The position numbers and the translations under genes were made by a program. 64,000 nucleotides of DNA, from NCBI RefSeq assembly GCF_010500245.1, contig NZ_JAAGOX010000053.1, forward strand, positions 1-64,000, written 5' to 3'. The notes beneath the pieces are model-generated. The model did not search any database. It saw only the letters and a list, made by a program, of their open reading frames with translations, and was not told the DNA's origin. Shown piece after piece: positions 1,902-52,485 of the stretch; position 1 is the stretch's first letter; every line of letters begins with the position of its first letter. Origin of the DNA: Ruegeria sp. PrR005. GTDB taxonomy: Bacteria > Pseudomonadota > Alphaproteobacteria > Rhodobacterales > Rhodobacteraceae.

Positions 1902-3203
1902 ATGCCGCAAATTCTTGACACCACCGACCCGGATTTCGACGCGGCCTTTGCCGCGCTTTTGTCGGCAAAGCGCGAAGACAGCCCGGATGTGGACAATGTC
2001 GTGGCCGGGATCATCGCCGATGTGCGGACACGCGGCGATGCGGCGGTGATCGAGCTGACCGAGAAGTTCGACCGGATCGCCCTGACGCCCGAGACCCTGC
2101 GTTTTTCCCCCGTCGAGATTGCCGAAGCCATAGCGCGGGTCGCGCCGGAAGATCGCGCGGCGCTGGAGCTGGCTGCGGCGCGCATCCACGCCTATCACGC
2201 GCGCCAGTTGCCCCGGGACGAGGAATGGACCGATGAGGCGGGTGCGACACTTGGCTGGCGCTGGTCTGCGGTCTCGGCGGCCGGGCTTTATGTGCCGGGC
2301 GGACTGGCCTCTTATCCGTCCTCGGTTCTGATGAACGCGATTCCGGCGAAGGTGGCCGGGGTTGGGCGCCTCGCCATCGCGGTGCCCACGCCTGACGGGC
2401 AGGTCAATCCGCTGGTTCTGTTGGCGGCGCATCTGTCCGGGGTGGACGAGATCTATCGCGTGGGCGGCGCGCAGGCGATTGCGGCCTTTGCTTATGGCAC
2501 CCGGACCATTGCGCCGGTGGACAAGATCACCGGGCCCGGCAATGCCTTTGTCGCGGCAGCGAAACGGCGGGTATTCGGCAAGGTCGGGATCGACATGATC
2601 GCGGGCCCGTCCGAGATTCTGGTGATTGCCGACAGGGAAAACGATCCCGACTGGATCGCGCTGGACCTGCTGAGCCAGGCCGAACACGATGAAAGCGCCC
2701 AGTCGATCCTGATAACCGATGACGCGGGCTTTGGCCGTGCGGTTGTGGCCGCCGTCGAAAACCGGCTGGAAACGCTGGAACGGCGCGCCATCGCCGGGGT
2801 AAGCTGGCGCGATTTTGGCGCGGTGATCACGGTGCGCGATCTGGACGAGGCGGCGGCGCTGTCGAACCGGATCGCACCGGAGCATCTGGAGCTCTGCGTT
2901 GCCGATCCCGAGGCTCTGTCGCTGAAAACTGTGCATGCGGGGGCGATTTTCCTGGGTCAGTATACGCCCGAGGCCATCGGCGATTATGTCGGCGGGCCGA
3001 ACCACGTGCTGCCCACCGCGCGCTCGGCACGGTTCTCGTCTGGCCTGAATGTGATGGATTTCCTCAAGCGCACGACCCTGTCCAAGATGACGCCCGAGGC
3101 GCTGCGCGCCATCGGTCCGGCGGCGGCGCGGCTGGCCCGGTCCGAGAGCCTGGAGGCGCATTGCCTGTCGGTTCTGGCGCGGCTGGATCGCCTGAACGGC
3201 TAG
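1902..3203 (+). CDS. hisD: Histidinol dehydrogenase
   Basis: HisD performs the last two steps of histidine synthesis, the four-electron NAD-dependent oxidation of L-histidinol to L-histidine. The 433 aa length is typical. Visible family signatures are GLYVPGGLASYPSSVLMNAI, the loop GPGNAFVAAAKR, the zinc-ligand region QAEHDE, and the APEHLEL motif carrying the catalytic Glu-His pair. The ATG at 1902 follows GAGGAA at proper spacing and gives the usual MPQ..L start; an upstream in-frame start at 1845 adds a non-conserved leader. Its TAG stop lies in the palindrome CTAG, which is also the stop of the convergent ATPase gene. The UPF0262 and infA genes I would expect downstream are absent. Confidence 0.96.
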   Translation: MPQILDTTDPDFDAAFAALLSAKREDSPDVDNVVAGIIADVRTRGDAAVIELTEKFDRIALTPETLRFSPVEIAEAIARVAPEDRAALELAAARIHAYHARQLPRDEEWTDEAGATLGWRWSAVSAAGLYVPGGLASYPSSVLMNAIPAKVAGVGRLAIAVPTPDGQVNPLVLLAAHLSGVDEIYRVGGAQAIAAFAYGTRTIAPVDKITGPGNAFVAAAKRRVFGKVGIDMIAGPSEILVIADRENDPDWIALDLLSQAEHDESAQSILITDDAGFGRAVVAAVENRLETLERRAIAGVSWRDFGAVITVRDLDEAAALSNRIAPEHLELCVADPEALSLKTVHAGAIFLGQYTPEAIGDYVGGPNHVLPTARSARFSSGLNVMDFLKRTTLSKMTPEALRAIGPAAARLARSESLEAHCLSVLARLDRLNG

Positions 3204-6200
3204 GCCCCGAGTTCCCGCGCGAAGGGAAAGAACCAGTCTGACAGGCGGTCGAACATCTCGCGCACGGTCGCCGCACGCGGGTCGAATTCGGAGAGGAAGG
3301 CGCAGAGCGTTCCAAGCTCGCCGCATTGATCCGCCGCTTCGACCAGGTTCGAGGATTGGCGCCCGGTATAGCCATGCACCGCCTCGGGGCGCAATTCGCG
3401 CGGCCAGTGGCGGGCGCGCTCCGAGAGCGCCTGGGCAAGGCGGACGGTGATTTCGCCCTCCTGGTCGTCAAGAATGTGGCGCAAGGGTGGATAAAGATCC
3501 GGATTAAGCCCCCGAAACATGCGAAAGGCGGTATCCGAGTGCGGGAGCCGTTCGCTTTGCAGCAGGCGGACGATGTCCTCGTCTTCGCCGAACTGCCGGT
3601 AGAGGGCGGCGATTTCTGACAGACCCACTGCACCTTGCGCCCAGAACTTTTCGATCCGGCTGGCCAGGTCGGGCACGGATTCGAAGAGCGCGGCAAACTC
3701 CTCTTCCGCGCCGATCCGGCCCGCCGCCAGGGCCAGGGCGCGCGGTGATCGGGGGGCGGCAGCCGGTCCGCTGCCGTGTGACGGGGCTGGCGCCACGTCG
3801 CGGCCCAGCCAGCCGTCGAGATCGCTTTCGGACAAGCGGTAGGAATCGACATAGGATCTGAAGCCCGCAGTGCGCAGCGCGCTGAAATCAGCCCCGTAGC
3901 CTGACCCGCTGGTGAAGGACCAAATGGTATCAACCAGCGACATGTACCCGTGCTTGGACCCCCCGAGGCTCTGAACGGCGATCCCCAGATCGGCAGTGTC
4001 GCTACTTGTGCCCGCAACCAGCAGGCATTGCCACAGCGACTGCCGCCAGAACCCGCGTGTCAGCGCCTCGGTCGTGTCGGCCTCGGCTTCGTCCTGGGTC
4101 TGGTCGCCCAGGGCCTTGATATATTGCGCGCCCAGGTTGGCCACCTCATCGAACCGGGCTGCGGCAAAGGCGCGCTGGATGTCGCGCGACAGGCGCGAGG
4201 CCGAAAGCCATTCGGAGCCTTCGGGGCGGTAGCGGTCCTGTTGCGGTTCGATGTCTGGGGCGCGTTTCCTGCTGGCCGCGCTGACAGTGCTGAACTCTTC
4301 TTCCGCAGCACTCAGCCCATGTTGGACAGCGGCGGTGAATTCCTGCGATTCCGCCTTTTCCCTAAGGTCTTCTGGTACATGAGCGGCCTCTTCGCGTGTC
4401 AGCACGCGGTCGAGATGGATCTTGACCCGTGCTCGCCAGGCGGGCGGCAGCGTCTCCAGATCCTCGCCCAGGGACAGGTCCAGCGCGCGGGCGGTGGCCG
4501 CGTCGAAGGCGGGAGGGTCTTCGGACGCGACAAAAGCCGCGTAATGCAGCGCCTGCACCACGCGCAACTCTTCGTCCAGCGCCGCCCAACGCGCCATGGG
4601 TTCCGCCCCGGCCTCGCGCGGCGGTCCGTTCAGGAAATAGTCGCGCGCGGCAGTGCAGACCGCCAGCGCATCCCGCCGCAACGCGGTTTTGCGGTCGCGA
4701 TCTTCGGGTGTGTCATTGGCGCGCGGCCCGGCAAAGAGACCGGCAACCATCATGCGCCGGACATCGGCCCGGTGGCGCAAGGTAAAGGGCGGCTCGTCTT
4801 CATCGACCAGCCAGTATTCATCTCTCAGCTTTTGGCCCAGCCTTGCGGCCTCTTCCTCGCTGGGCAGCGATCCGTCGGGTAAACCCAGGCAGGGCCCTGC
4901 CAGCACAAAGCGGATCAGATCATCGTTGATCTGCCTGAGGACAAGGCCCGGATGGGCCAGCTTTTGCATCTCGGGGTCGTTGATGCGTTCCAGGATCCGT
5001 TCGTACAGGAATCGGTGGGCAAACTCCGAGCGGAACCCCTCGTCCTGCTTGAGGCTGTCGACAAGCCCGTCGATATCGCCCTTATGGCCGCGCGCATATT
5101 GCACAAAGATCCGCAGGGCCAGCGGGTGACCATCGAGCAATTCGCTGACCTGAAGGCGCAGGATCGGGTTGGTCAATACCGCCGGCTGTTTCTTGGTGGC
5201 GAGCGAATTGTCTTCTTGTTCCAAGAGCTGTGCGCCAGCTTCGAGAGAGAGGCCGCGCAACTCGATGCGCCGGGACGCGGGGCCGAACCGATGGTCCAGC
5301 TCGTCACCCGACAGGGGTGCGGCACGGCCGGACAGGACGGTGCGCAAGCCGGTCAGATGGTTGCGCAGCCAAAGCTCGACATTCAGGATCTGGGTCACCA
5401 CCTGACCGCCCTGACGGTCGACCGCCTCGAAACTGTCCAGCGCCAGGGCGATGGGGTACTCGCGCAACTTGGCCGCCCAGTCCCCCTGGAACCACTCGGG
5501 AAACATGGTTTCCAGCGCGGCAGCCTGGCTGATGTGATCGCGCAGCTCGCCAAATGTATCGGTGGTCAGCAGGCGGCCGCGCAGGTCGCGTAATGTCTTG
5601 GACATCGCCTCGGCCTCGTCAGCGGGTTCGATGGCCCGGCGTACGCCCGCGGCCAACTGGCTGAGGATTTCGCGCGCGATCTGAATCGGCGAGCCGGATT
5701 TCAGTTGCGGACGGTCGAAATCGAGAATGACGGTGATCGGCGCGTCCTGTCGCGTTTGCCAATCCTGCAACAACCGGGCCAACAGCGCCGATTTGCCGAT
5801 GCCGCCTGTCCCTGTCAGCAGCACCGGCCGGGTATCCACGGTCTTGCCGCGCAGAAAGTTCGACAGGCGCCTACGGACATTGCGATAGCCGAAGTGGCGG
5901 GTGGGCTGGCCGCTGGCCAGATCCCGGCGTTTCTGAATGTCCTGGATCTGCCGTTTCACCTCGGTTTCGAGCCGGTCCATGACGGACTTGTCCAGCACCG
6001 GCACAACCCGCACGAACTGGACCGCGTCGAGCAGGGCGGCATTCTGGCGCAGGTGTTCCAGCAAGCTCTCGTCATCGTCGGTGGCACGCGGGCGGGGAAT
6101 CGCGACATCGTGGCCGGACAGCAGGCGATGCAGCGCCTGACCAAAGAGGTCGTCATGCCAGGGTGTCGGTGCGTGGTCGAGAACCTGGCCGAGCTGGGTC

Positions 6201-6442
6201 TGGGTCAGGAACTGCCGCAGGGTCGAGCGGCGCTGGTCGGGGCTGAGGATCCAGCCATAGCGGCGCGGCGCCCCCGGGGCCGAGCTGGTCACTTCGGCAA
6301 TGTCGCGCGAGAGGTGTCCCAGAAATTCGCGCCGCGTTTCCGACCACCGTTGCAGACCGATAGCCCGGCAGAGATCGTCGGGGTCGAAACAGCCGCTGAC
6401 CGCTGCCACCTCTCTTGCCAGGTCAACAAGCGCTCTTTGCAT
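3200..6442 (-). CDS. STAND-type P-loop ATPase (1080 aa)
   Basis: This large soluble protein has an N-terminal helical region of about 190 residues that might be an adaptor or effector-associated domain. A nucleotide-binding domain follows: Walker A TGTGGIGKS (residues 210-218), Walker B IALALDSFE (331-339), then RTVLSGRAAPL (about 367-377) as sensor region. The remaining 600 residues look helical, as in winged-helix plus TPR-like sensor arms of STAND ATPases. Such proteins oligomerise on sensing a signal; many act in phage defence or programmed death. It is the last gene of a three-gene operon: its ATG overlaps the stop of the trypsin-like gene by one base. No nuclease, TIR or pore domain is visible, so the upstream proteases are the likely effectors (inference). 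Confidence 0.75.
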   Translation of the reverse strand: MQRALVDLAREVAAVSGCFDPDDLCRAIGLQRWSETRREFLGHLSRDIAEVTSSAPGAPRRYGWILSPDQRRSTLRQFLTQTQLGQVLDHAPTPWHDDLFGQALHRLLSGHDVAIPRPRATDDDESLLEHLRQNAALLDAVQFVRVVPVLDKSVMDRLETEVKRQIQDIQKRRDLASGQPTRHFGYRNVRRRLSNFLRGKTVDTRPVLLTGTGGIGKSALLARLLQDWQTRQDAPITVILDFDRPQLKSGSPIQIAREILSQLAAGVRRAIEPADEAEAMSKTLRDLRGRLLTTDTFGELRDHISQAAALETMFPEWFQGDWAAKLREYPIALALDSFEAVDRQGGQVVTQILNVELWLRNHLTGLRTVLSGRAAPLSGDELDHRFGPASRRIELRGLSLEAGAQLLEQEDNSLATKKQPAVLTNPILRLQVSELLDGHPLALRIFVQYARGHKGDIDGLVDSLKQDEGFRSEFAHRFLYERILERINDPEMQKLAHPGLVLRQINDDLIRFVLAGPCLGLPDGSLPSEEEAARLGQKLRDEYWLVDEDEPPFTLRHRADVRRMMVAGLFAGPRANDTPEDRDRKTALRRDALAVCTAARDYFLNGPPREAGAEPMARWAALDEELRVVQALHYAAFVASEDPPAFDAATARALDLSLGEDLETLPPAWRARVKIHLDRVLTREEAAHVPEDLREKAESQEFTAAVQHGLSAAEEEFSTVSAASRKRAPDIEPQQDRYRPEGSEWLSASRLSRDIQRAFAAARFDEVANLGAQYIKALGDQTQDEAEADTTEALTRGFWRQSLWQCLLVAGTSSDTADLGIAVQSLGGSKHGYMSLVDTIWSFTSGSGYGADFSALRTAGFRSYVDSYRLSESDLDGWLGRDVAPAPSHGSGPAAAPRSPRALALAAGRIGAEEEFAALFESVPDLASRIEKFWAQGAVGLSEIAALYRQFGEDEDIVRLLQSERLPHSDTAFRMFRGLNPDLYPPLRHILDDQEGEITVRLAQALSERARHWPRELRPEAVHGYTGRQSSNLVEAADQCGELGTLCAFLSEFDPRAATVREMFDRLSDWFFPFARELGA

Positions 6443-8466
6443 CAGGTGTCCTCCGGCGCTTCGGTGCCAAGGCTGCCAAACAGGCTGTCGGCGGCACCGG
6501 CAACGTAATCCGTCACGAATTGCGACAAACGCTCAAGCGGCGCCTCGGTGCCCGCATATGCCCCGGCGATATCGGCCAGGAATTTCAACCCGTCCTCGTC
6601 CAGCGCGGCGTCGCGGGCGCCGCGCTCGTTCAGCCATTCGCGAAAGATGACGGAAGGGTTTTCCAGCGACTTCGCATTGATCGCGGAATGCGCCACCAGC
6701 GCCGGGTCGAGCCCGTTGATCTGGACATCCTCACGCAGCCCGACCAGCACCAGCCTGAGGTTCTGCTGTTGCCCGATCTGGTCATAGAGCGTTCCCAGAA
6801 ACTCGCGCCCCGAAGCATCGGACAGATCGTGCTTGTCCAGATCGTCGAGAACGATCCACACGGTCTTGTCACTCAGCCGCGCGCTGACCTGCTGCATGAA
6901 CTTGGACACCAGCCGCCGGACATAGGCCGGTGTGGTGGTATCGAGCGCCTTTGGCAGGATCTCTGCCGGATTGGGCGCGAAGGTTGCCAGCGTATCGCAG
7001 GCCAGCCGATAGGCATCGACCTGGATGTCACCGGCCCGGAACAGGATGTAGTGGTTTTCGGGCGCGGCGAAGAAATGTTGCAGGATGGAAAACGAGAAAC
7101 TTTTGCCCGGGCGGGTGATCGGCGTGTCAAAAGGGTTCACGTGGATCCTAAGCACCCGCTTGCTGCCATCCCACAGGTCGCGCAGCACCCGGAAGTATTC
7201 CTGCCGGCCAAAGACCGGCTGACCGCGGCCGATGCAACCGGCAATCAGATTAAGATCGGTCGTGCTGGTCAGCTGTGTCAGGGCGTTCTTTTTCTTCAGG
7301 TCCTCAGAGACCGCTTTCAGCGTGACCGCGACGTTCATCGTGGGGTTCTGGTGGAAAGGTTCCGAAGGATCGGCGCCTGCCTCGGCACCCAGATAGTGCA
7401 GTCCGATCGGGGTGCCGCCCTGGTTCAGCACCAGACCGCCCGACGACCCCTTGGCGGTTGTCGCCAAGTGAAAGATGCGGCTTTTCATCGGGAAGGTGTG
7501 AACCGCCCTACCCCCGGTCAGGGTTTGCCCCTCGGACCCGGGGTGATGCATGATCCAGACGCCATCTGGTTCGGCCTCTTCCACCTTGTCCAGCGCGAAC
7601 CATCCCCGTTGCAGGCCCGGCGCCCCGTCCAGACGGATGATCGCATAGTCCAGCGTATCCTCGACCTGGCCCAGCCAGGCCAGGCGTTTGCCGGGGTTGT
7701 CCCACCAATAGTCGTCCCCCCTGATCCAGTCTGCCAGGCCGCTCTGCGCCACCTTCCAACCGGTTTTCGCGGCGGAATAGCGGGGCTGGTCGGCATCGCG
7801 CAAACCGGTCGTCGCCGAGAAGTCGAACCGGACCGAGATCAGCTCTGGCTGATCGAACACCTCCCAGACGTCCTTGACCACGTGGAAGTTCGTCAGGACC
7901 GTCGACGGGCCGACCAGAAACCCGGTGCCGTTGACCTTCTTGCCCTTGGCGTTGACCGTGTCGATCCGGCAGAGGCGGCGGCGACCGAGGATGATCGCGG
8001 GCTGAAGATGCCCGGGATCGGTCCAAAACCCGTTTTCCGGCACAAAGGCTTGCAGTTCGTCGCTGGTCTCGCCGCGCTGCAACTCGGTGTTTTCATGATC
8101 GCGGCCCAGGGCGGTGGCCATGGCTTGCGCCAGCCTGCGGCGGTACTGTTCGCGGGTCTCTGTCGTCTCGGCCTCGAAGAGGCCGGCGGCAACCGCACCG
8201 GCGAAACAGTCGGCAACCGGTTGCGGCCCGCCAAGCGCCGCCAAAGCCAGGCACAAAGCCGCGCCGTCATCGGCCGGGTCAAGACCGCTGCCCTGCCCGG
8301 TCACGACCATGGCATGGGCAAAGTTCTGCGGCGCGCCGGGCAGGCGCCGCGCCCTGAGCCAGTTGTCGTACCATGCCCGCAACTGGGGCCTGGCAAATCG
8401 CAAACCTGAAACGACACCGTGGATGGAAGCGATCAGGCGCTCCTCGGTCCACTCTTCGTTCATCAT
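6442..8466 (-). CDS. Trypsin-like serine protease with degenerate STAND-like C-terminus
   Basis: The 674 aa protein has three parts. Residues 1-140 are helical and resemble an effector-associated adaptor domain. Residues about 155-390 form an S1-type protease with GTGFLVGPSTVLTNFHVV (His195), TLDYAIIRLD (Asp273) and TTAKGSSGGLVLN (Ser342), a complete triad. Residues about 415-600 look like a STAND-type ATPase fold: a strong Walker-B-like strand VWIVLDDLD (536-544) and LRLVLVGLRED (570-580), but the P-loop is reduced to RPGKS (452-456) without the leading glycines. That suggests an inactive nucleotide-binding module. It has no signal peptide, so it acts in the cytoplasm. The start overlaps the upstream gene by 4 bases. 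Confidence 0.75.
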   Translation of the reverse strand: MMNEEWTEERLIASIHGVVSGLRFARPQLRAWYDNWLRARRLPGAPQNFAHAMVVTGQGSGLDPADDGAALCLALAALGGPQPVADCFAGAVAAGLFEAETTETREQYRRRLAQAMATALGRDHENTELQRGETSDELQAFVPENGFWTDPGHLQPAIILGRRRLCRIDTVNAKGKKVNGTGFLVGPSTVLTNFHVVKDVWEVFDQPELISVRFDFSATTGLRDADQPRYSAAKTGWKVAQSGLADWIRGDDYWWDNPGKRLAWLGQVEDTLDYAIIRLDGAPGLQRGWFALDKVEEAEPDGVWIMHHPGSEGQTLTGGRAVHTFPMKSRIFHLATTAKGSSGGLVLNQGGTPIGLHYLGAEAGADPSEPFHQNPTMNVAVTLKAVSEDLKKKNALTQLTSTTDLNLIAGCIGRGQPVFGRQEYFRVLRDLWDGSKRVLRIHVNPFDTPITRPGKSFSFSILQHFFAAPENHYILFRAGDIQVDAYRLACDTLATFAPNPAEILPKALDTTTPAYVRRLVSKFMQQVSARLSDKTVWIVLDDLDKHDLSDASGREFLGTLYDQIGQQQNLRLVLVGLREDVQINGLDPALVAHSAINAKSLENPSVIFREWLNERGARDAALDEDGLKFLADIAGAYAGTEAPLERLSQFVTDYVAGAADSLFGSLGTEAPEDT

Positions 8467-11243
8467 TCGTCGGTCCCGCCTATCAAATCGGTCAAAAACG
8501 CACCGTCCCCCATATTGAGCACGGTCTGGATATCATGCGCCAGATTGGTTTCGAGCGATTGCCCGCCAAAATGCAGGCCGCAGAGCTGACCGGGGCTGTG
8601 CAGCGACACGATGGCAGACCCCGAATTGCCGGGCAGCGTGGTTGCATCATGGCTGAAGGCCCAGCCGCGCGGGTCGGTGGCCAGCGCTCCCGGACGCGCC
8701 TCGATCATGCCGGGGCTGATGTATTTGACCCCGTATTTGTCGCCATAGAGCTCGCCCAGCCGCGCCCAGAAGGCAAGATAGTTGTCCTTGTCCTGTCGCG
8801 GATCGGGCCCACGGACGCTGCGCGGTTCGGCCGGGTATCCGGCGACCAGAATCTTGGTCAGGTCGGTATCGGTGGTCGAGATCAGGCCCCGGTCAATCGG
8901 GTCTGGCGGCGGGGCGCGGCCATTGTCGGGGTCGATGCGCAAAAGAGCCATGTCGAGGCGGGACATGTTGACCGTGCGCCCGATGCGCGCGGCGCCTGCG
9001 GTCGCCACTTCCGTCAGGGTGAACCGGGTGTCGTCGTCCTGCGCCTCAGGGTCGAAGATGATCGAGACCGGGAACCGCAGATGGAACGGGCGCGAGCCGT
9101 CGGTGGAGGGGATCGGTTCGGCAAAGGCGTCGATGACGTGGCGGTTGGTCATCACCAGACCGTCGGACAGAAGGAAGCCGGTGCCGACATGCACCCATGT
9201 CCCTTGGGCGTTGCGCGCATCTATCCGGCCCACCGCGCGCACCAGCGGCTGCCAGCGGCTGACCGCCGTCAGCAGGTCGGCTTTCCAGGTGCCCAACATC
9301 GGGTCGAACAGTTCGGACCCGTCCGCCTGAACCCGGATCGCGGGACGGCCGGTGAGTTGCACCAGCGCCTCCAGCGCATATCCGACCTCGCCCGCCGACA
9401 TATGAACTTCGCGGTCCGGGTCGAGATGCGACTGGACGGCCTGCCTGATCCGGTCGGCCGCCTCGGCCTGCATCGTGGTGTCGACCAGATCCGGCGCAGC
9501 CTCGGCCTTGAGCTGGAAAAGCTCGGTCACGGTTTCCATCACCGCATCCAGCCCCTCGCCGCGCAGCCGTTCGACCGAGGCCTCATAGCTGATGTCAGAG
9601 GCGCTTTCAGTTGTACCGGAGCGGCCAACGGCGAGCCGACGCACGGCCCGGTCCAGTGGTGCGGGTGGGGCGACGGGGGCCAGCACGAGGCCCGGCGCGC
9701 CAATGGGCGCGCGATCGCCGAGCAGGGCCGCCAGCGCGGGCGACGGTTGCTCGCGCATCGCGTTTTCCAGGGTTATCGACGCCTCGGGCTCTGCCCGCAG
9801 CCGCCAGTCGAAGGCGACGAAATCGGCCTCGGCCTGAAGCCCCCCGGCGTCCAGATCGGGCCCAAAGAGACTGAGTGCTGGGCCCGCGGCCTCGGGCACC
9901 GGGCCGGTCACGATATCCTGCGGGTCGAGTGCCAAGAGCGCCTCGGCATCGACGATGCCCGCCCCCATCAGGTCGGTGTCCCAGCCCACGGGGCACCGCG
10001 AGGTCTGGCGCAGCGCCGCGCGAAACAGCTCTTGCAGCGGCAGGCCCCTGCGATGCGCCTCTTGCCGCAACGGGGCCCAGCCGAACCGCTCCAGCCACAG
10101 CGCCGCAACGCCCGCCGTCAGGGCGACGGCAAAGGAGGTGCCCTGTCCGCCCGTGTTCACATCGGCCAGGTCCATCTCGCCCGGGCGGCGGCGCGCGACA
10201 TGCAGGTTTTCGGCCGGGGCCGAGATGTCGACCTCGGGGCCCCGGCACGAGCCGCGCCAGCGGTTGCCCGCGTGGTCGACCCCAGCGACCGCGATCACGT
10301 TGCGATCGAACGCCGGGTAGGTGACGAAGCGCACGCAGTTCCCGGCGGCGGCCAGCACGATCAGGTCGGCAGAGACGGCGCGCGCCACGGCACGCCGCAT
10401 CACGCGGGGGCCAAAGGCGCTACCGAGGCTCATGGTCACCACGCGGCAGCCTTGATCACGCGCCCGGTCGAGCGCCCGCGCGACTGGCACCCAAGCGCCG
10501 ACGACCACCGCGTTATTGGTGCGGAACGGGATCAGTGTCGCCCCCGGCGCACTGCCTGTCACATGATGGCTCCGCCGGCTGGTCACCAGCGAGGCGGTCC
10601 CGGTGCCGTGACCGGGCGAGCCCATCTGCGGCGACAGCGGATCGGTCGGGTCGGGGGTGCCGTCGACAAAGTTGTATCCGCGCGCCTTGTCCACGCCCTG
10701 ATCCAGCTCGCGATGGGCGGCCACGCCGGTATCCGGCTGGCCAATCCTCTGCCCCGCGCCGGAGACCCCGAACCGGGTCATCGCCCGGTCGGCCTTGATC
10801 AGTTTCAGCGCCCAATCCGGGTCGGGCAGCGGCGCGGTATGGGCGCGGCACAAGTCCCAGACCACGTCACCGACGTTCTCGATGGGGGGTGCGACGCTTT
10901 CGACATCCGTGAAGGGCGGCGAGATGTCAGGCGTAACCGACACCAGGCCAAGCGCGTCGCGGAGTTCACCCGCCTGGGCAAACAGATAGCCCGGCGACTG
11001 CTCGATCGGCACCCCGGGAAATTGCAGCACAAGCAGGTCGTCATCCGCCTCGGTCGCGCGGAAGAGATCGAAACCATCGCCGCCAAGCAACGCGGCAATC
11101 CCGGCGCGCGCATCCTCGGGCGATACCGGCCCCGGATACTCCAGAGTGAACGACAGGATGTCTGTTGGCAGATTGTCACGGCCAGTAGGTACCGCCACCC
11201 GGCTGGCGGCCTTGAGCAGGTCCAACATCACGAAACCCTCCAA
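8463..11243 (-). CDS. Subtilisin-trypsin double serine protease (926 aa)
   Basis: One polypeptide carries two complete serine protease triads. The subtilase domain (about 150-390) has IGQPDTGVAAH (Asp171), GSPGHGTGTASL (His212), oxyanion Asn302 in AAAGN and GQGTSFAVALTAGVAALW (Ser370). A linker of about 280 residues follows, then an S1-like domain with GTGFLLSDGLVMTNRHV (His702), SRLDMALLRID (Asp764) and TLPGNSGSAIV (Ser874). No signal peptide or propeptide is evident: the first 150 residues look like a folded adaptor domain, so action is presumably intracellular. It is the first gene of the operon with the trypsin/STAND-like and STAND genes, translationally coupled by a 4-base overlap. The start could also be the in-frame ATG six codons in. 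Confidence 0.8.
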   Translation of the reverse strand: MEGFVMLDLLKAASRVAVPTGRDNLPTDILSFTLEYPGPVSPEDARAGIAALLGGDGFDLFRATEADDDLLVLQFPGVPIEQSPGYLFAQAGELRDALGLVSVTPDISPPFTDVESVAPPIENVGDVVWDLCRAHTAPLPDPDWALKLIKADRAMTRFGVSGAGQRIGQPDTGVAAHRELDQGVDKARGYNFVDGTPDPTDPLSPQMGSPGHGTGTASLVTSRRSHHVTGSAPGATLIPFRTNNAVVVGAWVPVARALDRARDQGCRVVTMSLGSAFGPRVMRRAVARAVSADLIVLAAAGNCVRFVTYPAFDRNVIAVAGVDHAGNRWRGSCRGPEVDISAPAENLHVARRRPGEMDLADVNTGGQGTSFAVALTAGVAALWLERFGWAPLRQEAHRRGLPLQELFRAALRQTSRCPVGWDTDLMGAGIVDAEALLALDPQDIVTGPVPEAAGPALSLFGPDLDAGGLQAEADFVAFDWRLRAEPEASITLENAMREQPSPALAALLGDRAPIGAPGLVLAPVAPPAPLDRAVRRLAVGRSGTTESASDISYEASVERLRGEGLDAVMETVTELFQLKAEAAPDLVDTTMQAEAADRIRQAVQSHLDPDREVHMSAGEVGYALEALVQLTGRPAIRVQADGSELFDPMLGTWKADLLTAVSRWQPLVRAVGRIDARNAQGTWVHVGTGFLLSDGLVMTNRHVIDAFAEPIPSTDGSRPFHLRFPVSIIFDPEAQDDDTRFTLTEVATAGAARIGRTVNMSRLDMALLRIDPDNGRAPPPDPIDRGLISTTDTDLTKILVAGYPAEPRSVRGPDPRQDKDNYLAFWARLGELYGDKYGVKYISPGMIEARPGALATDPRGWAFSHDATTLPGNSGSAIVSLHSPGQLCGLHFGGQSLETNLAHDIQTVLNMGDGAFLTDLIGGTDE

Positions 11244-11492
11244 TCGAAGATCAGAAAATGTGCTTTGAAATATCGTCCGAGCCTATCACCAAATGCCTTG
11301 AAAATGAAGGTCTGTCTTCGCCTGTGGCGGGCAAATCCGGTCGCTCAGAATACCATGCCTTGCAAATTTCTTTCCCTTCCTGCGGGTTTCAGGCCCCGTT
11401 TTTCCACCCACGGGGACTTGGCAACTGACCAAGTTCATTATATTCCTCAAGGACTTGATCCCTTGTCGCTATCTTTTTGACACATCAACGGA

Positions 11493-12209
11493 ATGGGATA
11501 TCGAACCGTGCGACCATCAAACAGAAAGCCCGCAATCCCGGTCGAAACGGTTCTTGCCAAAGTGTCCCTGCTGGCCGGGCTCGACCCGCAGGACCTGCGG
11601 CGGTTCGCCAACGACCTCGATCCGATGACGGTGAATACCGGGCAGACCGTGGTCGAGCAGGGCGAAACCTCGACCGAGATGTATGTCGTGTATTCCGGCC
11701 GCCTGGTCGGCCTGCTGCTGTCCCCCAATGGCAAGGAAGTGGCCTTTACCGAGATTACCGCTGGCCGCTATTTCGGAGAACTGGCCGCGCTGGACAATCG
11801 CCCCAGGTCGCTGACGATTTCAGCGGCCGAACCCACGATGCTGGGTCGGATGTCGGCGGACAAGTTGCTGACCTGGATGGCCGAGGTGCCTCGGCTGGCA
11901 CGCAACCTTGCCATCGATCTGGCCGAGCGGAACCGGGCCTTGACCGAGCGGGTGTTCGGGCTGGTGGTGCATGATGTCGACAAACGCGTCCGCGCCTTTC
12001 TGCTGCAACAGGCACAGCTGGAACATCAGCTTAAACCCGGCGGCGTGCTGGACCCATGCCCGACCCATGACGTGATCGCGAACTATATCGGCGCCACGCG
12101 CGAGGCGGTCAGCCGGGTCATGGCGCGGCTGGCGGCCACCGGCGTGATTGAAACCGGCCGCCGCCGGTTGGAGATTAGCGATATCGACCGTCTTTTCGAA
12201 GGGTTATGA
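11493..12209 (+). CDS. Crp/Fnr-family cyclic-nucleotide-responsive regulator
   Basis: The 238 aa protein has an N-terminal cyclic-nucleotide-binding beta barrel and a C-terminal winged helix. The phosphate-binding cassette reads FGELAALDNRPRSLTISA (about residues 90-107), close to the cAMP-binding GEL....R(S/T)A consensus. No cysteine cluster for an FNR-type Fe-S centre is seen. The DNA-recognition helix lies in NYIGATREAVSRVMARL. It converges on the class III cyclase gene: the two ends overlap by six bases, so a cAMP producer and a cAMP reader are neighbours. The 249 bp upstream region is shared divergently with the double-protease operon, making this regulator a candidate controller of that operon (inference). 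No standard Crp box was found there by eye. Confidence 0.85.
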   Translation: MGYRTVRPSNRKPAIPVETVLAKVSLLAGLDPQDLRRFANDLDPMTVNTGQTVVEQGETSTEMYVVYSGRLVGLLLSPNGKEVAFTEITAGRYFGELAALDNRPRSLTISAAEPTMLGRMSADKLLTWMAEVPRLARNLAIDLAERNRALTERVFGLVVHDVDKRVRAFLLQQAQLEHQLKPGGVLDPCPTHDVIANYIGATREAVSRVMARLAATGVIETGRRRLEISDIDRLFEGL

Positions 12210-15200
12210 GCCGCCCCATCTGTCCTGAAGACGCAGACAGATCGGCAACATCCAACGCTCGCCTGCGCGAATGTCCCGTTCCAGCCTGCTCAGATCCGCT
12301 GTCGGCGCGGACAGGCCGGCGGCCTCTTCCGCCATGGCGTGGATGGTGCGGAATGTGGGGTTGAGAAACAGGAAACCCTGGTTGGTCAGAACCGCCAGAG
12401 CCTGTTGGAAATCTTCCTGGCCTTGTTCGACATTGCCCTCGGATATCCGGCCGATCCCCGTCAGCATGCGGGCGTAGACGACCCAGAAGCCCAGATCCTT
12501 TTCCTGGGCCAGTCGCGCCAGCCAGGCCGAGAAGTCGCGGAATGCAAGCCAGTCGCCGGACACCGCCGAAGGGAATGCAGCTCCAAACGTCAGGGTATGG
12601 CACAGGGTGTGAGTCATTTCCGTCTGGAGAGCCGCCGCGATAGCCCGGTCGATGGCCTGGCGCGTCGTCTCGTTCGGCGCGGTGAACGCGTCGATGGCCG
12701 CGACGCAACACAGGACCGTTGCATGATTGTCCGTCGCCCCGAACAGCCGCATCGGTTCGGCATGCTGCACCGGGTCGTAGGCGTTGAGAAAACGTTCAAG
12801 ATGAACTCGGGCGGATTCGAACTCGCCCCGGAACATCAGGCTGGACCCCAGCATCCGGTCGAGGACCAGCGCATGCAGGCCGCTGGGGTCGGCCTCGGCG
12901 ATCTCGGCCAGGCCCGAGGCGAATTCGTAACTTGCGTCGATATCGCCCTGCACGCTGTAATCTATCCAGCGAAAGAACATGGCCGAAAACACCCGCTGGC
13001 TGCCGCCGGTGCGCTCGATCAGGGCGTTGATCCGGCCCAGAACATCCTCTCCCGCAGCGCGATAACCTTTGGCGCCGATCAGGGCGGGATACATGGCCAG
13101 CAGGGTGTCCGCCTCGAAATGGTCGATCCAGTCGCCTTCGGCCTGTTCCATGCGCGGCAACAGCGACAGCGCATGACGGAACAGCGCCACCGCTTCGGCA
13201 TCCGCCGATTGTGCTGCGGCGTTGCGCCCGGCCTCGGCCCACAACTCGGCCGCGGCGCGCAACCGGCCAGCCCGTTCCAGCTGATCGGCGAGCAGCGTCG
13301 GCTCGACCGTCAGGCCACGGTCGCGCTGGCGGCCAAGGGCGTCGGCGATCGCGGCATGTATCCGCTCGCGGTCGCGAGTCAGGATAATGTCATAGGCACA
13401 GTCCTGAAGGATCTGGTGACGCAGGATCAGGCGCTTGTCAGGGCTGCTGTCGCGGGACAGGTGAAGCTCGGCCAGGCCGGAGGCCACCAGTTCGTCAAGC
13501 GCGTCTTCGAAACGCCCCGGACCGGGCCACAGGTCCCGCAAGAGCGCCACCGAGGCTTCGCGCCCGATGCTGGCGATCAGCCTCAGCAAGGGGCGCGCGG
13601 TGACAAGCCTGCGAATACGGGCGTGCAGGCTCTGTTGCAGGCTGGAAGGGACGGACAGGTCCGGCAGGTTATCGGTGGCAGAACTGTCGGCCGCCGTCAG
13701 GCGCGCGCGCATTTCCAGCGCCAGTTCCTCGGCAAACACCGGCACGCCCTCGGCGCGGGCGACCAGAGGTGCGACCAGCGCCTCGCCGCCATCGGCCCCG
13801 GCCAGTACGCTGCGGACGATGCTGTTGGTGTGTTCCGGCGACAGCAGTCCCAGCGAGATCGGAACCGCGCCATCAATCCTCATCAACCGCTGGTCCGGCA
13901 GGGCATTGCGGGCCGACGCAATCAGCAAGAGGCCCGGCGGCCGCAACGAGGCCAGCGCCAGCAGAACTTCGAGCGTCGAGGGATCGGCCCATTGCAGATC
14001 GTCAATCCACAGCACATGCGAACCGGAAACCGAGGTACCGAAATACTCGGCCATAGCGCCTATCACCCGGGTGCGGCGATGGCGGCGCTCGGCCCGGGTT
14101 GCGGTCGGGATCCCGTCCAGCTCGGCGCAGAGCGACGCGGCGGCGGGGTTGTTTTCCTGTGTCAGCAATAGCCGGAACGCCTCGAACGGCTTGTCGCGCC
14201 CATGCGCCGGGCAGGTCACATGGCGCACCTGATACCCTTCGTGCCGCAGGTTCGCCAGGAACTCGCTGACCAGGCGCGACTTCCCGATCCCGTGTTCGCC
14301 TGCCACCGTGACCAGGTTGAATGCGCCCATTCCAACGGCATTCCAACAGGCCGACAGCCTTGCCAGCTCGGCCCGACGGTTAACAAAGGGAACCCGCTCG
14401 GGCTGCGACAGCAGGGCGGCATTGACACCGGGAGACCGCTCCGGACCCACTTCATAAAGCGGCGCGGGCTCTTCGATCCCTTTTAGATGGCGCAGACCGA
14501 GAAAGCGCAGGTTGAAATGCTGCTTTACCAGCGCCGCCGTTGTATCGGCGATGACAACCTTGCCCGGTTGCGCCTCGGCCTGGAGACGGGCGGCGGTGTT
14601 CACCACGGCGCCGTAGGCGCGGCCGCCGCGCTCGTACTGGCTGAGTTGGCGGTCACCGACGACCACGGGGCCCGAGGCGACCCCGACACGGACCTGAAGC
14701 ATATGGCCATTGGGCGCCGACAATTGACCGACACGGGCGACCGCATCGCGCGCGGCAAAGACGCCGCGCAGGGCGGCGTCCTCCATCGCCTCGGGATAGC
14801 CGAAATAGATCAGAACCCCATCGCCGTGGTATTGCGCCACATGCCCGCCGTACCGGTCAACGGCTGTGTCGACCGCGTTATAGAACCCGGCCAGCAAGTC
14901 GGTAAACCGCTCTTCTCCCAATTCGTGGGCCAGACCGGTCGAGCCGACGAGGTCGCAGAACACCACCGTCAGGTATATCCGCTCACCCTCGTCGCCCGCA
15001 TGTGCGGCGCTGGTGGTCTGCCTGGCCTTCTGCTCGGCGATCCGGGCCAGGATCTTGCGCCGATGGCCAAGCGATTTCACGCCCAGGTCGGCCAGATCTT
15101 GGTCCGAGAGATGTTCCAGCACCTCGAAGTCTATGTCGGCGCTCTCGAACTGGTCGGCGTACGAGCCAAGCCCCATCTGATCCAGGAAGGAGGCAACAGA

Positions 15201-15227
15201 GCCGATATCCCGGTAACCGTCATTCAT
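12204..15227 (-). CDS. SAM-domain class III cyclase fused to ATPase and helical repeats
   Basis: The 1007 aa signalling protein opens with a SAM domain (about residues 8-68; LDQMGLGSYADQFESADID, then LSDQDLADLGV). A class III cyclase domain follows (about 85-265) with the metal-binding strand VVFCDLVGST, the second metal segment QYHGDGVLIYFGYP and the transition-state stretch GAVVNTAARLQ. An AAA-type module comes next with Walker A GEHGIGKSR and Walker B HVLWIDDLQWAD. The C-terminal 500 residues are helical, probably TPR-like. No membrane segment is seen. The predicted reaction is ATP to cAMP (or GTP to cGMP), gated by the ATPase/TPR sensor. It follows the FAD oxidase gene by 6 bases, so the two are one operon. 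Confidence 0.88.
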   Translation of the reverse strand: MNDGYRDIGSVASFLDQMGLGSYADQFESADIDFEVLEHLSDQDLADLGVKSLGHRRKILARIAEQKARQTTSAAHAGDEGERIYLTVVFCDLVGSTGLAHELGEERFTDLLAGFYNAVDTAVDRYGGHVAQYHGDGVLIYFGYPEAMEDAALRGVFAARDAVARVGQLSAPNGHMLQVRVGVASGPVVVGDRQLSQYERGGRAYGAVVNTAARLQAEAQPGKVVIADTTAALVKQHFNLRFLGLRHLKGIEEPAPLYEVGPERSPGVNAALLSQPERVPFVNRRAELARLSACWNAVGMGAFNLVTVAGEHGIGKSRLVSEFLANLRHEGYQVRHVTCPAHGRDKPFEAFRLLLTQENNPAAASLCAELDGIPTATRAERRHRRTRVIGAMAEYFGTSVSGSHVLWIDDLQWADPSTLEVLLALASLRPPGLLLIASARNALPDQRLMRIDGAVPISLGLLSPEHTNSIVRSVLAGADGGEALVAPLVARAEGVPVFAEELALEMRARLTAADSSATDNLPDLSVPSSLQQSLHARIRRLVTARPLLRLIASIGREASVALLRDLWPGPGRFEDALDELVASGLAELHLSRDSSPDKRLILRHQILQDCAYDIILTRDRERIHAAIADALGRQRDRGLTVEPTLLADQLERAGRLRAAAELWAEAGRNAAAQSADAEAVALFRHALSLLPRMEQAEGDWIDHFEADTLLAMYPALIGAKGYRAAGEDVLGRINALIERTGGSQRVFSAMFFRWIDYSVQGDIDASYEFASGLAEIAEADPSGLHALVLDRMLGSSLMFRGEFESARVHLERFLNAYDPVQHAEPMRLFGATDNHATVLCCVAAIDAFTAPNETTRQAIDRAIAAALQTEMTHTLCHTLTFGAAFPSAVSGDWLAFRDFSAWLARLAQEKDLGFWVVYARMLTGIGRISEGNVEQGQEDFQQALAVLTNQGFLFLNPTFRTIHAMAEEAAGLSAPTADLSRLERDIRAGERWMLPICLRLQDRWGGS

Positions 15228-15233
15228 GCCTGG

Positions 15234-16820
15234 TTACCCGGCGGCCGCCTGAATCGGGTCCTCGAACCCCTTGAACCCGGGGGGAAACCCGGGGCCGGGC
15301 GGGTGCCATTCAAGCGGCGCAATGCTTTGCGGGAACCGCAGCAGGTCGATGGGATCGTATTTGCCCTTGATCAGCCGCAACAACCAATACTTGTCGCCCC
15401 AATATTGTTCGGCAAAACCCGGATTTTCCGGGCTTGGGTAATTCTGATAGCTTTGGCCGGTCCAATGCGGGGCAAAAACCTGCTCCCATCCCTTGATGAA
15501 CTGCATCATCTGCTCTTCCTCCTGCTCGGTCAGCCAGAAGACATCGAAGAACAGATCACAATACACATCCCGGTGAAAGAACGCATTTCCCGAAATCGGC
15601 ATGCGTGCAATGGCGCCGCCATAGATCTCCATGGCCGCGATGGTGTAGGGGCTGGGCGAGGATCGGAAGTAGTCCAGCAACTGTTTCCAGCCATCGGCAG
15701 AGACCGGTTTGGCGACATAACGGCTGATCTTCGCCTCGGGCGGCGGCATCGGCGTCATATCCGCGGGGAATTCGGGCACCTCGTAGGGTTCGCTCAGCAG
15801 GATGCGATTGAGATCGATATAGGGCTGCGGATCGTAGAGCGCTTGCAGGGTCGCGCCCGGCAGGGCCAGCACGGGGTTCAGTACCTCTTGCAGGTCTTCC
15901 CGGCTGCCGCGGTAGACGCCGCGCATCAACAGCACGGGTTCCTTGGCCTGACCGGTCGGGCCCTCGAACGCCCAGATCATCTGGTAGCCCAGCGTATCGG
16001 GCGCGCCGGTGCGCATGAAGTTCTCTTGCAACCAGGCCAGAGATTGCGCGGCCTTGGCGGTGCCCTCGTCGGTCTGCATGGACCAACGCACGGAAAACCC
16101 AGAGAATTTCGAACCGCGATAGAGGCGATACTTGACTGCCAGCAGAATACCGAAATTGCTGCCGGTGCCCCCCCGGACCGCCCAGAACAGATCCGGGTTC
16201 AGTTCGGCATTGGCATGCACGATGCGCCCGTCAGTCAGCATCACACGGATCTCTTCGACCTGGTCGCAGTTCATCCCAAAGATGCGCGCGGTAAACCCAT
16301 AGCCACCGCCCTGCATATAGCCACCGACGCAGACATCCGGGCAGGCCCCTCCGGGGGTGTGAAGGTCATAGGTCTGAAGCTTGGCGTTGAACTTGCCGAA
16401 ATTCGTACCGGGGCCGACCCAGGCGCGCAGCGCCTCGGGGGTGATACAGACATCGTTCATCCGGCTGACGTCGATCAGAAAGCCGTTTTGCGATGAAAAA
16501 CCTGCCGTGCTGTGGCCGCCCGACCGGACCACAACCGCCATCGACAGGGCCCGCGCCACGCGCAGGCATTCGGCGACATCCGCTTCGACCTCGCAATACA
16601 CGATGACCTCTGGAAAGGCCGAGAACCTGGGGTTCGACAGCATGCGGTCGGCGTTGTATTCGGGGTCTCCCGGCAGAACGACCGTTCCCAGAATGTTTTT
16701 TTGCAGCTCTTCCGCGTATTTCGGAGGGAGACCTTGTGCGGATCCTTCGGTTTCTCTTTTGGCTGCCCACAATTCCGATCTTTTGCGCAAACGTTGCGCG
16801 CGACTATCATACCAAAGCAC
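15234..16820 (-). CDS. Berberine-bridge-enzyme-type FAD oxidase
   Basis: The 528 aa flavoprotein has a PCMH-type FAD-binding domain with RSGGHSTAG (the His that can bind FAD 8-alpha) and GGACPDVCVGGYMQGGG, whose Cys can form the second covalent FAD link. A BBE C-terminal box contains NYPSPEN and EQYWGDKYWLLRLIKGKYDP. Such enzymes oxidise alcohols, sugars or alkaloid-like amines with O2, giving H2O2. There is no signal peptide. The start is a GTG preceded by AGGA. It is directly upstream of, and probably co-transcribed with, the cyclase gene. This is an unusual pairing: the oxidase could generate the cue or act as an output. The substrate is unknown. Confidence 0.85.
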   Translation of the reverse strand: MLWYDSRAQRLRKRSELWAAKRETEGSAQGLPPKYAEELQKNILGTVVLPGDPEYNADRMLSNPRFSAFPEVIVYCEVEADVAECLRVARALSMAVVVRSGGHSTAGFSSQNGFLIDVSRMNDVCITPEALRAWVGPGTNFGKFNAKLQTYDLHTPGGACPDVCVGGYMQGGGYGFTARIFGMNCDQVEEIRVMLTDGRIVHANAELNPDLFWAVRGGTGSNFGILLAVKYRLYRGSKFSGFSVRWSMQTDEGTAKAAQSLAWLQENFMRTGAPDTLGYQMIWAFEGPTGQAKEPVLLMRGVYRGSREDLQEVLNPVLALPGATLQALYDPQPYIDLNRILLSEPYEVPEFPADMTPMPPPEAKISRYVAKPVSADGWKQLLDYFRSSPSPYTIAAMEIYGGAIARMPISGNAFFHRDVYCDLFFDVFWLTEQEEEQMMQFIKGWEQVFAPHWTGQSYQNYPSPENPGFAEQYWGDKYWLLRLIKGKYDPIDLLRFPQSIAPLEWHPPGPGFPPGFKGFEDPIQAAAG

Positions 16821-50600: not shown

Positions 50601-52118
50601 ATGGCAAACCCCCTCTATGACCGCCTGTTCGGAGCCTATGCCGGCAAACAAACGCCGTTTCTTCGCCTGGCTGACGGTCGCACCGTCACCCATGCCCAGT
50701 TTCTGGAACAGGCCGCGCAGATTGCCCATGTCACCGCAAAACTGGGCCTGAAGCCAGGCGACCGCGTCGCCGCCCAGATCGAAAAATCACCCGAAGCGCT
50801 GGCGCTCTATGCCGCCTGCGCCCAGGCGGGCCTGATCTTTCTACCGCTCAACACCGCCTATACCGCCGATGAACTCAGCTACTTCATCGAAAACAGCGGC
50901 GCCGCGCTGATCGTCTGCGACGGGCGCAGCCGCGAGACATTGCAGCCGATCGCCAGCGACCTCGGCGCCCGGATCGAAACCCTGAATGCCGACGGGTCTG
51001 GCAGCCTGACCGACAGCGCCGCGACCATGCCGACCACCTTCGCAACCGTCGACCGCACGGGCGATGATCTGGCGGCCTTCCTCTATACCTCGGGCACCAC
51101 CGGCCGCTCCAAGGGTGCCATGCTGACCCAGGACAACCTGCTGTCGAACGCCGAAACCCTGGCACAGGAATGGCGCTTCACCGCCGATGACGTGCTGCTG
51201 CACGCACTGCCGATCTTTCACACCCACGGCCTGTTCGTGGCCACCAATATCGTGCTGATCACCGGCGGCAGCATGATCTTCCTGCCGAAATTCGACCTCG
51301 ACCAGATCATCGCCCAAATGCCCCGCGCGACCAGCATGATGGGCGTCCCGACCTTCTACACCCGCCTCCTGGGCGATGCCCGGTTCACCCGCGACCTGGC
51401 GCAGCACATGCGCCTCTTCGTCTCCGGCTCGGCCCCCCTGCTGGCCGAAACCCATGTCGCGTTCGAAGAGCGCACCGGCCACCGCATCCTGGAACGCTAC
51501 GGGATGACCGAGACCAACATGAACACCTCAAACCCCTATGACGGCGACCGCCGCGCGGGCACCGTGGGCTTGCCCCTGCCCGGGGTCGAACTGAAGGTGA
51601 CCAACCCCGAAACCGGCGAGATCCTGCCCCGGGGCGAGATCGGCCAGATCGAGGTGCGCGGACCAAACGTGTTCAAGGGCTATTGGCAGATGCCCGAGAA
51701 AACCGCCGCCGAACTGCGCGCCGACGGGTTCTTCATCACCGGAGACCTCGGCCTTGTCGATGCCGATGGCTATGTCACCATCGTCGGCCGCAACAAGGAC
51801 CTGATCATCTCGGGCGGTTACAACATCTACCCCAAAGAGATCGAGCTCCTGCTCGATGAGCAGCCCGGCGTGCTGGAAAGCGCGGTGATCGGTGTGCCGC
51901 ATCCCGATTTCGGCGAAACCGTGCTGGGCATCCTGGTCCCCCGCCCCGGCCAGACCCCGGATACCCAGGCGATCATGCAGACGGTGGGCGCCGCACTGGC
52001 CCGGTTCAAACATCCCCGCACGCTGATCGTGCTGGACGAGTTGCCCCGCAACACCATGGGCAAGGTGCAAAAGAACATCCTGCGCGACCAGTACAAGGAC
52101 ATGTTCCAACCGGGGTAA
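50601..52118 (+). CDS. matB: Malonyl-CoA synthetase
   Basis: The 505 aa AMP-forming ligase joins malonate to CoA. The ANL signatures are FLYTSGTTGRSKGAMLTQDN, ILERYGMTETNMNTSNPYDG, FITGDLGLVDADGYVTIVGR and the A10 lysine in RNTMGKVQKNILRDQYKD. The RYGMTETNMNTSNPY stretch is typical of MatB rather than acetyl-CoA synthetases. It follows the decarboxylase by four bases and ends the operon. Confidence 0.94.
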   Translation: MANPLYDRLFGAYAGKQTPFLRLADGRTVTHAQFLEQAAQIAHVTAKLGLKPGDRVAAQIEKSPEALALYAACAQAGLIFLPLNTAYTADELSYFIENSGAALIVCDGRSRETLQPIASDLGARIETLNADGSGSLTDSAATMPTTFATVDRTGDDLAAFLYTSGTTGRSKGAMLTQDNLLSNAETLAQEWRFTADDVLLHALPIFHTHGLFVATNIVLITGGSMIFLPKFDLDQIIAQMPRATSMMGVPTFYTRLLGDARFTRDLAQHMRLFVSGSAPLLAETHVAFEERTGHRILERYGMTETNMNTSNPYDGDRRAGTVGLPLPGVELKVTNPETGEILPRGEIGQIEVRGPNVFKGYWQMPEKTAAELRADGFFITGDLGLVDADGYVTIVGRNKDLIISGGYNIYPKEIELLLDEQPGVLESAVIGVPHPDFGETVLGILVPRPGQTPDTQAIMQTVGAALARFKHPRTLIVLDELPRNTMGKVQKNILRDQYKDMFQPG

Positions 52119-52485
52119 GGCCTGCGCCCCGCAACAGGTACTTGACGCAGGTGAGACGACCCCGGTCGAGCCAGAACAGGGGCGACATGGACAATCCTCC
52201 TGCCGCCCGTGAGCCACGATGGTGTTACTGATGGAGTCTGGCCAGTCGTGTTTGCAGATCGGAAAGCAGCGGTCATCCGACAATCGCCGTCGGGTGATAG
52301 GGGAGAGCCCATGCTGTGAGTTGGCAAAGTACGCAGAAACCGTCGTCAAGGTCGGAGAGCGGACTTTCGCTGTGGCCGGCTCCAAGGTCAGCAGTGCGGG
52401 CTATGTTTACATTTGATTAACGTCAGCTTTCACGCACGAAACCTGAGCGCGCAGTTTCAAAAACTGGCGATCACAACGAAAAAAA
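52119..52485. other. Intergenic region with possible IS5-type transposase remnant
   Basis: The 367 bp between matB and the next gene hold no intact gene. On the minus strand, from an ATG at about 52188, 18 codons read MSPLFWLDRGRLTCVKYL, which resembles the first residues of IS5-family transposases (MSxLFWLxxxQxxxLxPF). The frame then runs into matB without further similarity. The rest, 52190-52485, shows nothing I can name. It turns noticeably AT-richer from about 52400. Confidence 0.35.

What the first reader, a model, noticed from the sequence alone, without database searches (positions are those of the whole stretch)
3200..11243. Three-gene double-protease/STAND operon, candidate undescribed defence or cell-fate system
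Seen: three genes with 4-base and 1-base overlaps encode (1) a cytoplasmic subtilisin+trypsin protein, (2) a trypsin-like protein with a degenerate ATPase domain, (3) a 1080 aa STAND ATPase. Known: STAND ATPases and trypsin-like or caspase-like proteases with adaptor domains recur in bacterial conflict systems. Inference: the STAND sensor activates a proteolytic cascade of up to three protease domains. I know of no described system with exactly this set.
Basis: partly seen in the sequence, partly recalled or inferred. Interest (0 to 1): 0.8.

Follow-up and report, generated by a model that had tools for sequence, protein, structure and literature searches.

The report
Double-protease CARD-NLR-type immune operon
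Three overlapping genes in a Ruegeria-type marine bacterium encode a switch ATPase and two proteases that match a recently described family of bacterial immune or self-lysis systems (CARD-NLR/LypABC), here with a digestive-type protease where relatives carry a DNA-cutting enzyme.

Summary
Three tightly overlapping minus-strand genes (3200-11243) encode a cytoplasmic subtilisin+trypsin protein (g1), a protein with N-terminal helices, a trypsin domain and a degenerate ATPase domain (g2), and a STAND/NACHT ATPase (g3). All three catalytic triads and the g3 Walker motifs are intact. "Undescribed" does not hold. The set matches, part by part, the CARD-NLR family typified by LypABC of Caulobacter and "System 3" of Kaur et al. 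2020: g2 is LypA-like, g3 LypB-like, and the g1 trypsin domain is related to that of LypC-type trypsin-NucA proteins. Here a subtilase takes the place of the NucA nuclease, and the genome has no Endonuclease_NS gene. Relatives with the same subtilase-trypsin protein keep the trio together in Rhodobacteraceae, on Rhizobium plasmids and in Polaromonas. Some lie beside CBASS or other candidate defence genes. In Ruegeria the trio is an accessory module: one species has lost it, and R. pomeroyi DSS-3 has a frameshifted g2. Most likely mechanism (inferred): g3 oligomerises on a trigger, recruits and activates g2, and g2 unleashes g1, ending in cell death or lysis. A CARD fold in g2 could not be shown; both structure predictions were poor.

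The parts
8463..11228 (-). g1: LypC-like protein, subtilase plus trypsin (921 aa from the ATG; the TTG ORF starts at 11243)
9999..10754 (-). g1 subtilase (S8) domain, catalytic D171, H212, S370 (TTG numbering)
   Evidence: Pfam PF00082 2.8e-28; thermitase best solved relative; triad conserved
8574..9185 (-). g1 trypsin domain (TRY1), catalytic H702, D764, S874; related to the trypsin of trypsin-NucA LypC-like proteins
   Evidence: Pfam PF13365; BLASTP 9e-21 to L067 trypsin-NucA; PADLOC PDLC03010 5e-27
6442..8466 (-). g2: LypA-like protein (N-terminal helical domain, trypsin, degenerate ATPase), 674 aa
7972..8466 (-). g2 N-terminal region (1-165): probably helical, candidate recruitment domain; CARD fold not shown
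7399..7929 (-). g2 trypsin domain, catalytic H195, D273, S342
   Evidence: Pfam PF13365 8.3e-12; triad conserved in all 15 aligned rows
6706..7230 (-). g2 degenerate ATPase domain (altered P-loop ITRPGKSF, Walker-B-like IVLDDLD)
3200..6442 (-). g3: LypB-like STAND/NACHT ATPase, 1080 aa
5219..5875 (-). g3 NACHT/STAND ATPase core, Walker A K217, Walker B D336
   Evidence: Pfam PF05729 1.8e-6, above its cut-off
3743..4252 (-). g3 fast-evolving C-terminal stretch (residues 731-900), candidate sensor region
   Evidence: 66.5% identity against 85-94% in the rest of g3, window against L002

Best explanation
The trio is a CARD-NLR/LypABC-type system with a subtilase in place of the usual nuclease. In the resting state g3 (NLR-like STAND ATPase) is autoinhibited. 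A phage product or infection-caused disturbance acts on its C-terminal part, and g3 then binds ATP and oligomerises (inferred from the STAND family). Its N-terminal domain recruits g2 through the g2 N-terminal region (inferred from the LypA-LypB contact), and clustering turns on the g2 trypsin domain. g2, alone or with the trypsin half of g1, releases the g1 subtilase, which then degrades cell proteins or activates an unlinked lytic effector; the cell dies or lyses before phage are released. Shown here: domains, intact catalytic residues, co-conservation, homology to each LypABC component. Inferred: trigger, recruitment, order of cleavage, final effect.
For: Architecture: g2 = N-terminal region, trypsin, degenerate ATPase; g3 = N-terminal domain, intact ATPase, long C-terminus; g1 carries a trypsin domain related to that of trypsin-NucA proteins (BLASTP 9e-21). 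LypA, LypB and LypC have these parts, and their peptidases and ATPase are needed for lysis while the nuclease is not. Bridge locus L067 (Paraburkholderia): 603/1031/662 aa in LypA-LypB-LypC order, with LypC-like catalytic Ser293 and His470 against the published S296 and H471, and BLASTP matches to g1 and g3. L073 and L074 carry a subtilase gene, a LypA-like, a LypB-like and a trypsin-NucA gene together; L062 carries the window trio plus NucA. All 14 plasmid records with g1 also have g2, and 12 have a g3 that is not broken up. Tree distances of the three genes correlate, r = 0.57-0.80. Relatives sit by CBASS (L064), a Fic gene (L061) and candidate defence genes (L067). The window genome has no Endonuclease_NS gene.
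Against: No CARD fold was shown for g2: model pLDDT 46, no significant fold match, and profile comparison aligned only the linker before the trypsin domain. The g3 model was also poor (pLDDT 43). The Ruegeria locus lies beside hisD and denitrification-type genes, not in a defence island. No gasdermin, phospholipase or nuclease is encoded in the operon. LypB and the Lysobacter proteins could not be fetched, so no tree places g3 in the published CARD-NLR clade. Mantel tests do not remove shared species history. No functional data.
Confidence: 0.62

Rival explanations
1. The trio is a lysis-control module for gene transfer agent (GTA) release, as LypABC is in Caulobacter crescentus, and not a phage-defence system.
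For: The best studied relative does this and is also not in a defence island (PMC13236601). The window genome holds two GTA_TIM loci, so it may make GTAs. The trio is retained in 4 of 5 genomes of the genus.
Against: The genome also has a GTA_holin_3TM gene, the classical lysis route. Relatives lie on conjugative plasmids, one beside CBASS. One species of the genus lost the trio and R. pomeroyi DSS-3 has a frameshifted g2.
Confidence: 0.2
2. The trio is a stress or protein-quality regulator wired to the neighbouring CRP-like regulator and SAM-cyclase-ATPase gene.
For: The CRP gene is divergent from g1, and in the four genomes with the trio the cyclase lies next to that block.
Against: In G680 the CRP gene remains while the trio and the cyclase are gone, and no CRP or cyclase gene is annotated beside the trio in the Rhizobium, Sinorhizobium or Polaromonas loci.
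Confidence: 0.08
3. The operon is decaying and no longer functional here.
For: g2 is frameshifted in R. pomeroyi DSS-3, g3 is broken in Sinorhizobium, and G680 keeps only fragments.
Against: All three window genes are intact, keep every catalytic residue, and show dN/dS of 0.10-0.31 against two relatives.
Confidence: 0.05

Closest known systems
LypABC of Caulobacter crescentus, a CARD-NLR-like system (PMC13236601, Nat Microbiol 2026)
   Same: LypA has an N-terminal helical domain, trypsin and an ATPase lacking conserved Walker residues; LypB is an NLR-like ATPase; the third protein carries a second essential trypsin. Three-gene operon, rare and patchy, not in a defence island.
   Different: Here the third protein has a subtilase and no NucA nuclease; gene order is g1 (C-like), g2 (A-like), g3 (B-like); the g2 N-terminal region is longer (about 165 against 80 aa) and not shown to be a CARD; role unknown.
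CARD-NLR anti-phage systems of Lysobacter enzymogenes and Azospirillum (Wein et al. 2025, Nature; known here only through PMC13236601)
   Same: NLR-like ATPase with a trypsin-like protease that carries an adaptor and an ATPase domain.
   Different: Those activate death effectors such as gasdermin, phospholipase or endonuclease. None is encoded in the window operon, where a subtilase is the only linked candidate. I recall, but could not check, that DefenseFinder lists a subtilase subtype of CARD-NLR.
'System 3', NucA-peptidase systems (Kaur et al. 2020, PMC7159879)
   Same: Mostly alphaproteobacterial operons coupling trypsin peptidases, in some cases a subtilisin, and a STAND NTPase; predicted proteolytic cascade.
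   Different: A NucA endonuclease is a core component of System 3; the window operon and its whole genome have none.
AVAST type 1 (Avs1)
   Same: Trypsin-like protease working with a STAND NTPase; proteolytic activation of an effector (PMC12799240).
   Different: No metallo-beta-lactamase nuclease in the operon; only weak, local similarity to the Avs1b model (E 0.0016).

Membership tests
CARD-NLR / LypABC | NLR-like STAND ATPase with intact Walker A and B | tested here: met
   NACHT above Pfam cut-off; GTGGIGKS and ALALD; Lys217 and Asp336 invariant in 13 homologues
CARD-NLR / LypABC | Trypsin-like protease fused to a degenerate ATPase domain (LypA architecture) | tested here: met
   g2 Trypsin_2 at 180-356, degenerate ATPase at 413-587 shared with 14 related proteins
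CARD-NLR / LypABC | N-terminal CARD-like domain on the protease | tested here: inconclusive
   Low-confidence model, six main helices within 8-119, no significant fold or profile match. The profile of relatives' N-termini has only insignificant RIG-I/MDA5 CARD hits, E 0.1-1.5
CARD-NLR / LypABC | Third protein with a LypC-type trypsin domain | tested here: met
   g1 624-908 to the L067 trypsin-NucA protein, 9e-21, 31%; PADLOC PDLC03010 hits both
CARD-NLR / LypABC | Linked known death effector (gasdermin, phospholipase or endonuclease) | tested here: not met
   None in the operon; no Endonuclease_NS in the genome. Not strictly defining: in LypABC the nuclease is dispensable for lysis. An unlinked gasdermin was not tested
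CARD-NLR / LypABC | NLR falls in the CARD-NLR clade of the ATPase tree | not tested
   Reference sequences could not be fetched; only my own tree, which includes LypABC-like L067, was made
CARD-NLR / LypABC | Anti-phage or lysis activity | not testable with these tools
   Needs experiments
Kaur et al. System 3 (NucA-peptidase) | Trypsin peptidases with subtilisin and STAND components in one operon | tested here: met
Kaur et al. System 3 (NucA-peptidase) | NucA-type endonuclease core component | tested here: not met
   Absent from operon and genome; the control search rang in Caulobacter
AVAST type 1 | Metallo-beta-lactamase nuclease upstream of the protease | tested here: not met
   No such gene; upstream is a divergent CRP-type regulator

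The most novel reading that the evidence does not exclude
A CARD-NLR-type system that kills by proteolysis alone: with no nuclease in the operon, no Endonuclease_NS gene in the genome and no linked pore former, the NLR and adaptor protease switch on a cytoplasmic subtilase that is itself the death effector.
Probability: 0.3. Interest if true: 0.68.

Novelty: new member of a known kind. Interest (0 to 1): 0.42.

Why it matters
How CARD-NLR systems without a gasdermin kill or lyse the cell is open; the LypABC authors state that its lytic effector is unknown. This locus is a nuclease-free natural variant whose only linked candidate effector is a second protease, so it allows a direct test of whether proteolysis alone is enough. 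It also extends the family's range of third-protein designs (trypsin-NucA, trypsin-NucA-subtilase, subtilase-trypsin) and gives a marine Ruegeria model for it.

Tried and rejected
AlphaFold2 on the g2 N-terminal region and on full g3, each with three sequences: pLDDT 46 and 43, not usable; a fold search with the first gave no match at E <= 0.001. Apparent g2 N-terminal matches in two genomes (L080, L081) look like RNA-methyltransferase-type proteins on reading the sequence, and were dropped as chance. A propeptide fold for the g1 N-terminus was not found by profile against the PDB. Sequence search of g2 and g3 against the PDB found no informative relative. A class-wide survey with a g3 profile found one further genome at E <= 1e-20 among 385, but only two candidates per genome were scored, so it may undercount. 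No match to g3 in the phage collection. PADLOC Pycsar and TIR hits on the neighbouring cyclase and CRP genes span only the general cyclase and cyclic-nucleotide domains and were not taken as a Pycsar system. The Wein et al. paper and its preprint were not held.
Full report
Observation. g1 is 8463..11243 on the minus strand from a TTG, but a GGAGG lies about 8 bases before an ATG at codon 6, so 11228 is the likelier start. g1 and g2 overlap by 4 bases and g2 and g3 by 1. Pfam finds a subtilase and a Trypsin_2 domain in g1, a Trypsin_2 domain and a sub-threshold AAA_16 match in g2, and NACHT/AAA_16 in g3. The triads and Walker motifs are present. Hydropathy shows no signal or membrane segment. 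Across related loci the trypsin triads are conserved in all 18 (TRY1) and 15 (TRY2) aligned rows; these sets include near-duplicate Ruegeria loci. The subtilase Asp, His and Asn are conserved in all 15 rows. The Ser is conserved in 13, and in the two stand-alone subtilases of L073 and L074 the motif reads GTT instead of GTS.

Relatives. The closest are Ruegeria: L002/G031 (g1 94%, g2 90%, g3 86% identity) and L003 (81%, 58%, 62%), plus R. pomeroyi DSS-3. In 298 genomes of the family, g3 matched in 7 and g1 with long coverage in only a few; most g2 matches were to the trypsin domain alone.

Domain map. Profiles built from the window domains were run over the related loci. Wherever the complete set is present, a trypsin-degenerate ATPase protein (one gene or two) stands beside the STAND ATPase. 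The third component, where found, carries a trypsin domain of the g1 type. It comes as subtilase-trypsin (window, L061, L062, L068, L069), trypsin-NucA (L067, L071, and L073 and L074 with a separate subtilase gene), trypsin-NucA-subtilase (L070) or trypsin alone (L065). Pfam confirmed the NucA domain in L067, L070, L072, L074 and in the separate Polaromonas gene. Distances on trees of the g1 trypsin, g2 trypsin, g2 ATPase and g3 ATPase correlate (r 0.57-0.80, permutation p <= 0.0006, 12 loci), and the subtilase-trypsin loci and the trypsin-NucA loci tend to separate. Shared species history is not removed by this test.

Link to a named system. LypABC of Caulobacter crescentus is described as CARD-NLR-like. 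LypA is an N-terminal CARD-like domain, trypsin and an ATPase domain lacking conserved Walker residues; LypB is an NLR-like ATPase with TPR-like repeats; LypC is trypsin plus endonuclease. [quoted passage not shown] the nuclease residues are not (PMC13236601). The reported masses are 65, 112 and 73 kDa. Locus L067 has 603, 1031 and 662 aa proteins in the same order, and its third protein has the trypsin Ser at 293 and the nuclease His at 470 against published S296 and H471. The window proteins match L067 (g1 9e-21, g3 1.6e-21 by BLASTP; g2 by profile). Kaur et al. 2020 had already described alphaproteobacterial operons of trypsin, NucA, subtilisin and STAND parts as a candidate conflict system with a proteolytic cascade (PMC7159879). 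So the kind is known. From memory only, DefenseFinder lists a subtilase subtype of CARD-NLR; I could not check this.

What differs here. There is no nuclease in the operon and no Endonuclease_NS anywhere in the genome, while the same search rang in the Caulobacter control. The only linked candidate effector is the subtilase. The g2 N-terminal region is about 165 aa; a CARD fold was neither shown nor excluded.

Genomic setting. In the genus sample 4 of 5 genomes carry the trio. In G680, hisD and the CRP gene flank a gap of about 750 bases where the trio would be; it contains two short stretches matching the C-terminal part of g3 (67% identity, E 1.8e-6 and 1.1e-4) on the strand expected, so the trio was probably present and lost. 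In G679 hisD lies about 80 kb away while the trio, CRP gene and cyclase stay together. The Ruegeria surroundings are metabolic. In relatives, CBASS cyclase and phospholipase genes lie a few kilobases from the Sinorhizobium copy, a Fic gene near the Rhizobium copy, and PDC-M30/M41 candidate defence genes near L067.

Evolution. g1 is more conserved (81%) than g2 (59%) and g3 (63%) between the window and L003. Within g3, residues 731-900 are the most divergent stretch (66.5% against L002, other parts 85-94%), with dN/dS 0.37 against 0.12-0.21. All values are below 1, so this is rapid change under constraint, consistent with a sensor region but not proof of it.

Mechanism and verdict. The best reading is NLR sensing, adaptor-protease activation, and release of the g1 protease, ending in death or lysis. 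The protease and ATPase requirement is taken from LypABC; the trigger, the cleavage order and the role of the subtilase are inference. The chief rival is control of GTA-mediated lysis: the genome has two GTA_TIM loci and a GTA holin. I file it as a new member of a known kind; the nuclease-free composition is what makes it worth testing.

Noticed in passing
G000 C13:19306-20202 and C55:113269-114162; C55:46199-46528: The window's genome has two GTA_TIM loci, suggesting two gene transfer agent clusters, and one GTA_holin_3TM gene.
   Followed up: no
L060 9985-12001 (R. pomeroyi DSS-3 megaplasmid): The g2 homologue in this strain is split between two overlapping reading frames, so it looks frameshifted; intact copies exist in L002 and L003.
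   Followed up: partly
L073 5073-6719 and L074 8751-10397: Stand-alone subtilases in two related loci read GTT where the catalytic GTS is expected; both loci also have a trypsin-NucA gene.
   Followed up: partly
window 12204-16820: SAM-cyclase-ATPase gene and a BBE-type FAD oxidoreductase, both absent at the G680 site although the CRP gene is kept.
   Followed up: partly
window 11416-11434: Inverted repeat ACTTGG-N7-CCAAGT between g1 and the divergent CRP gene; the exact motif was not found in L002, L003 or L060.
   Followed up: partly
window 51531-54843: Low-GC patch (51% at 52-54 kb against 60-67% elsewhere) with four ORFs that have no Pfam match.
   Followed up: no
L075 6559-9702: Single 1047 aa protein fusing a g1-type trypsin with a g2-type trypsin and ATPase domain, next to a g3-like gene.
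   Followed up: no
L063 7282-12169 (Paracoccus plasmid): Related set in which trypsin and ATPase parts are separate genes and the ATPase protein carries an EAD1 adaptor domain.
   Followed up: no
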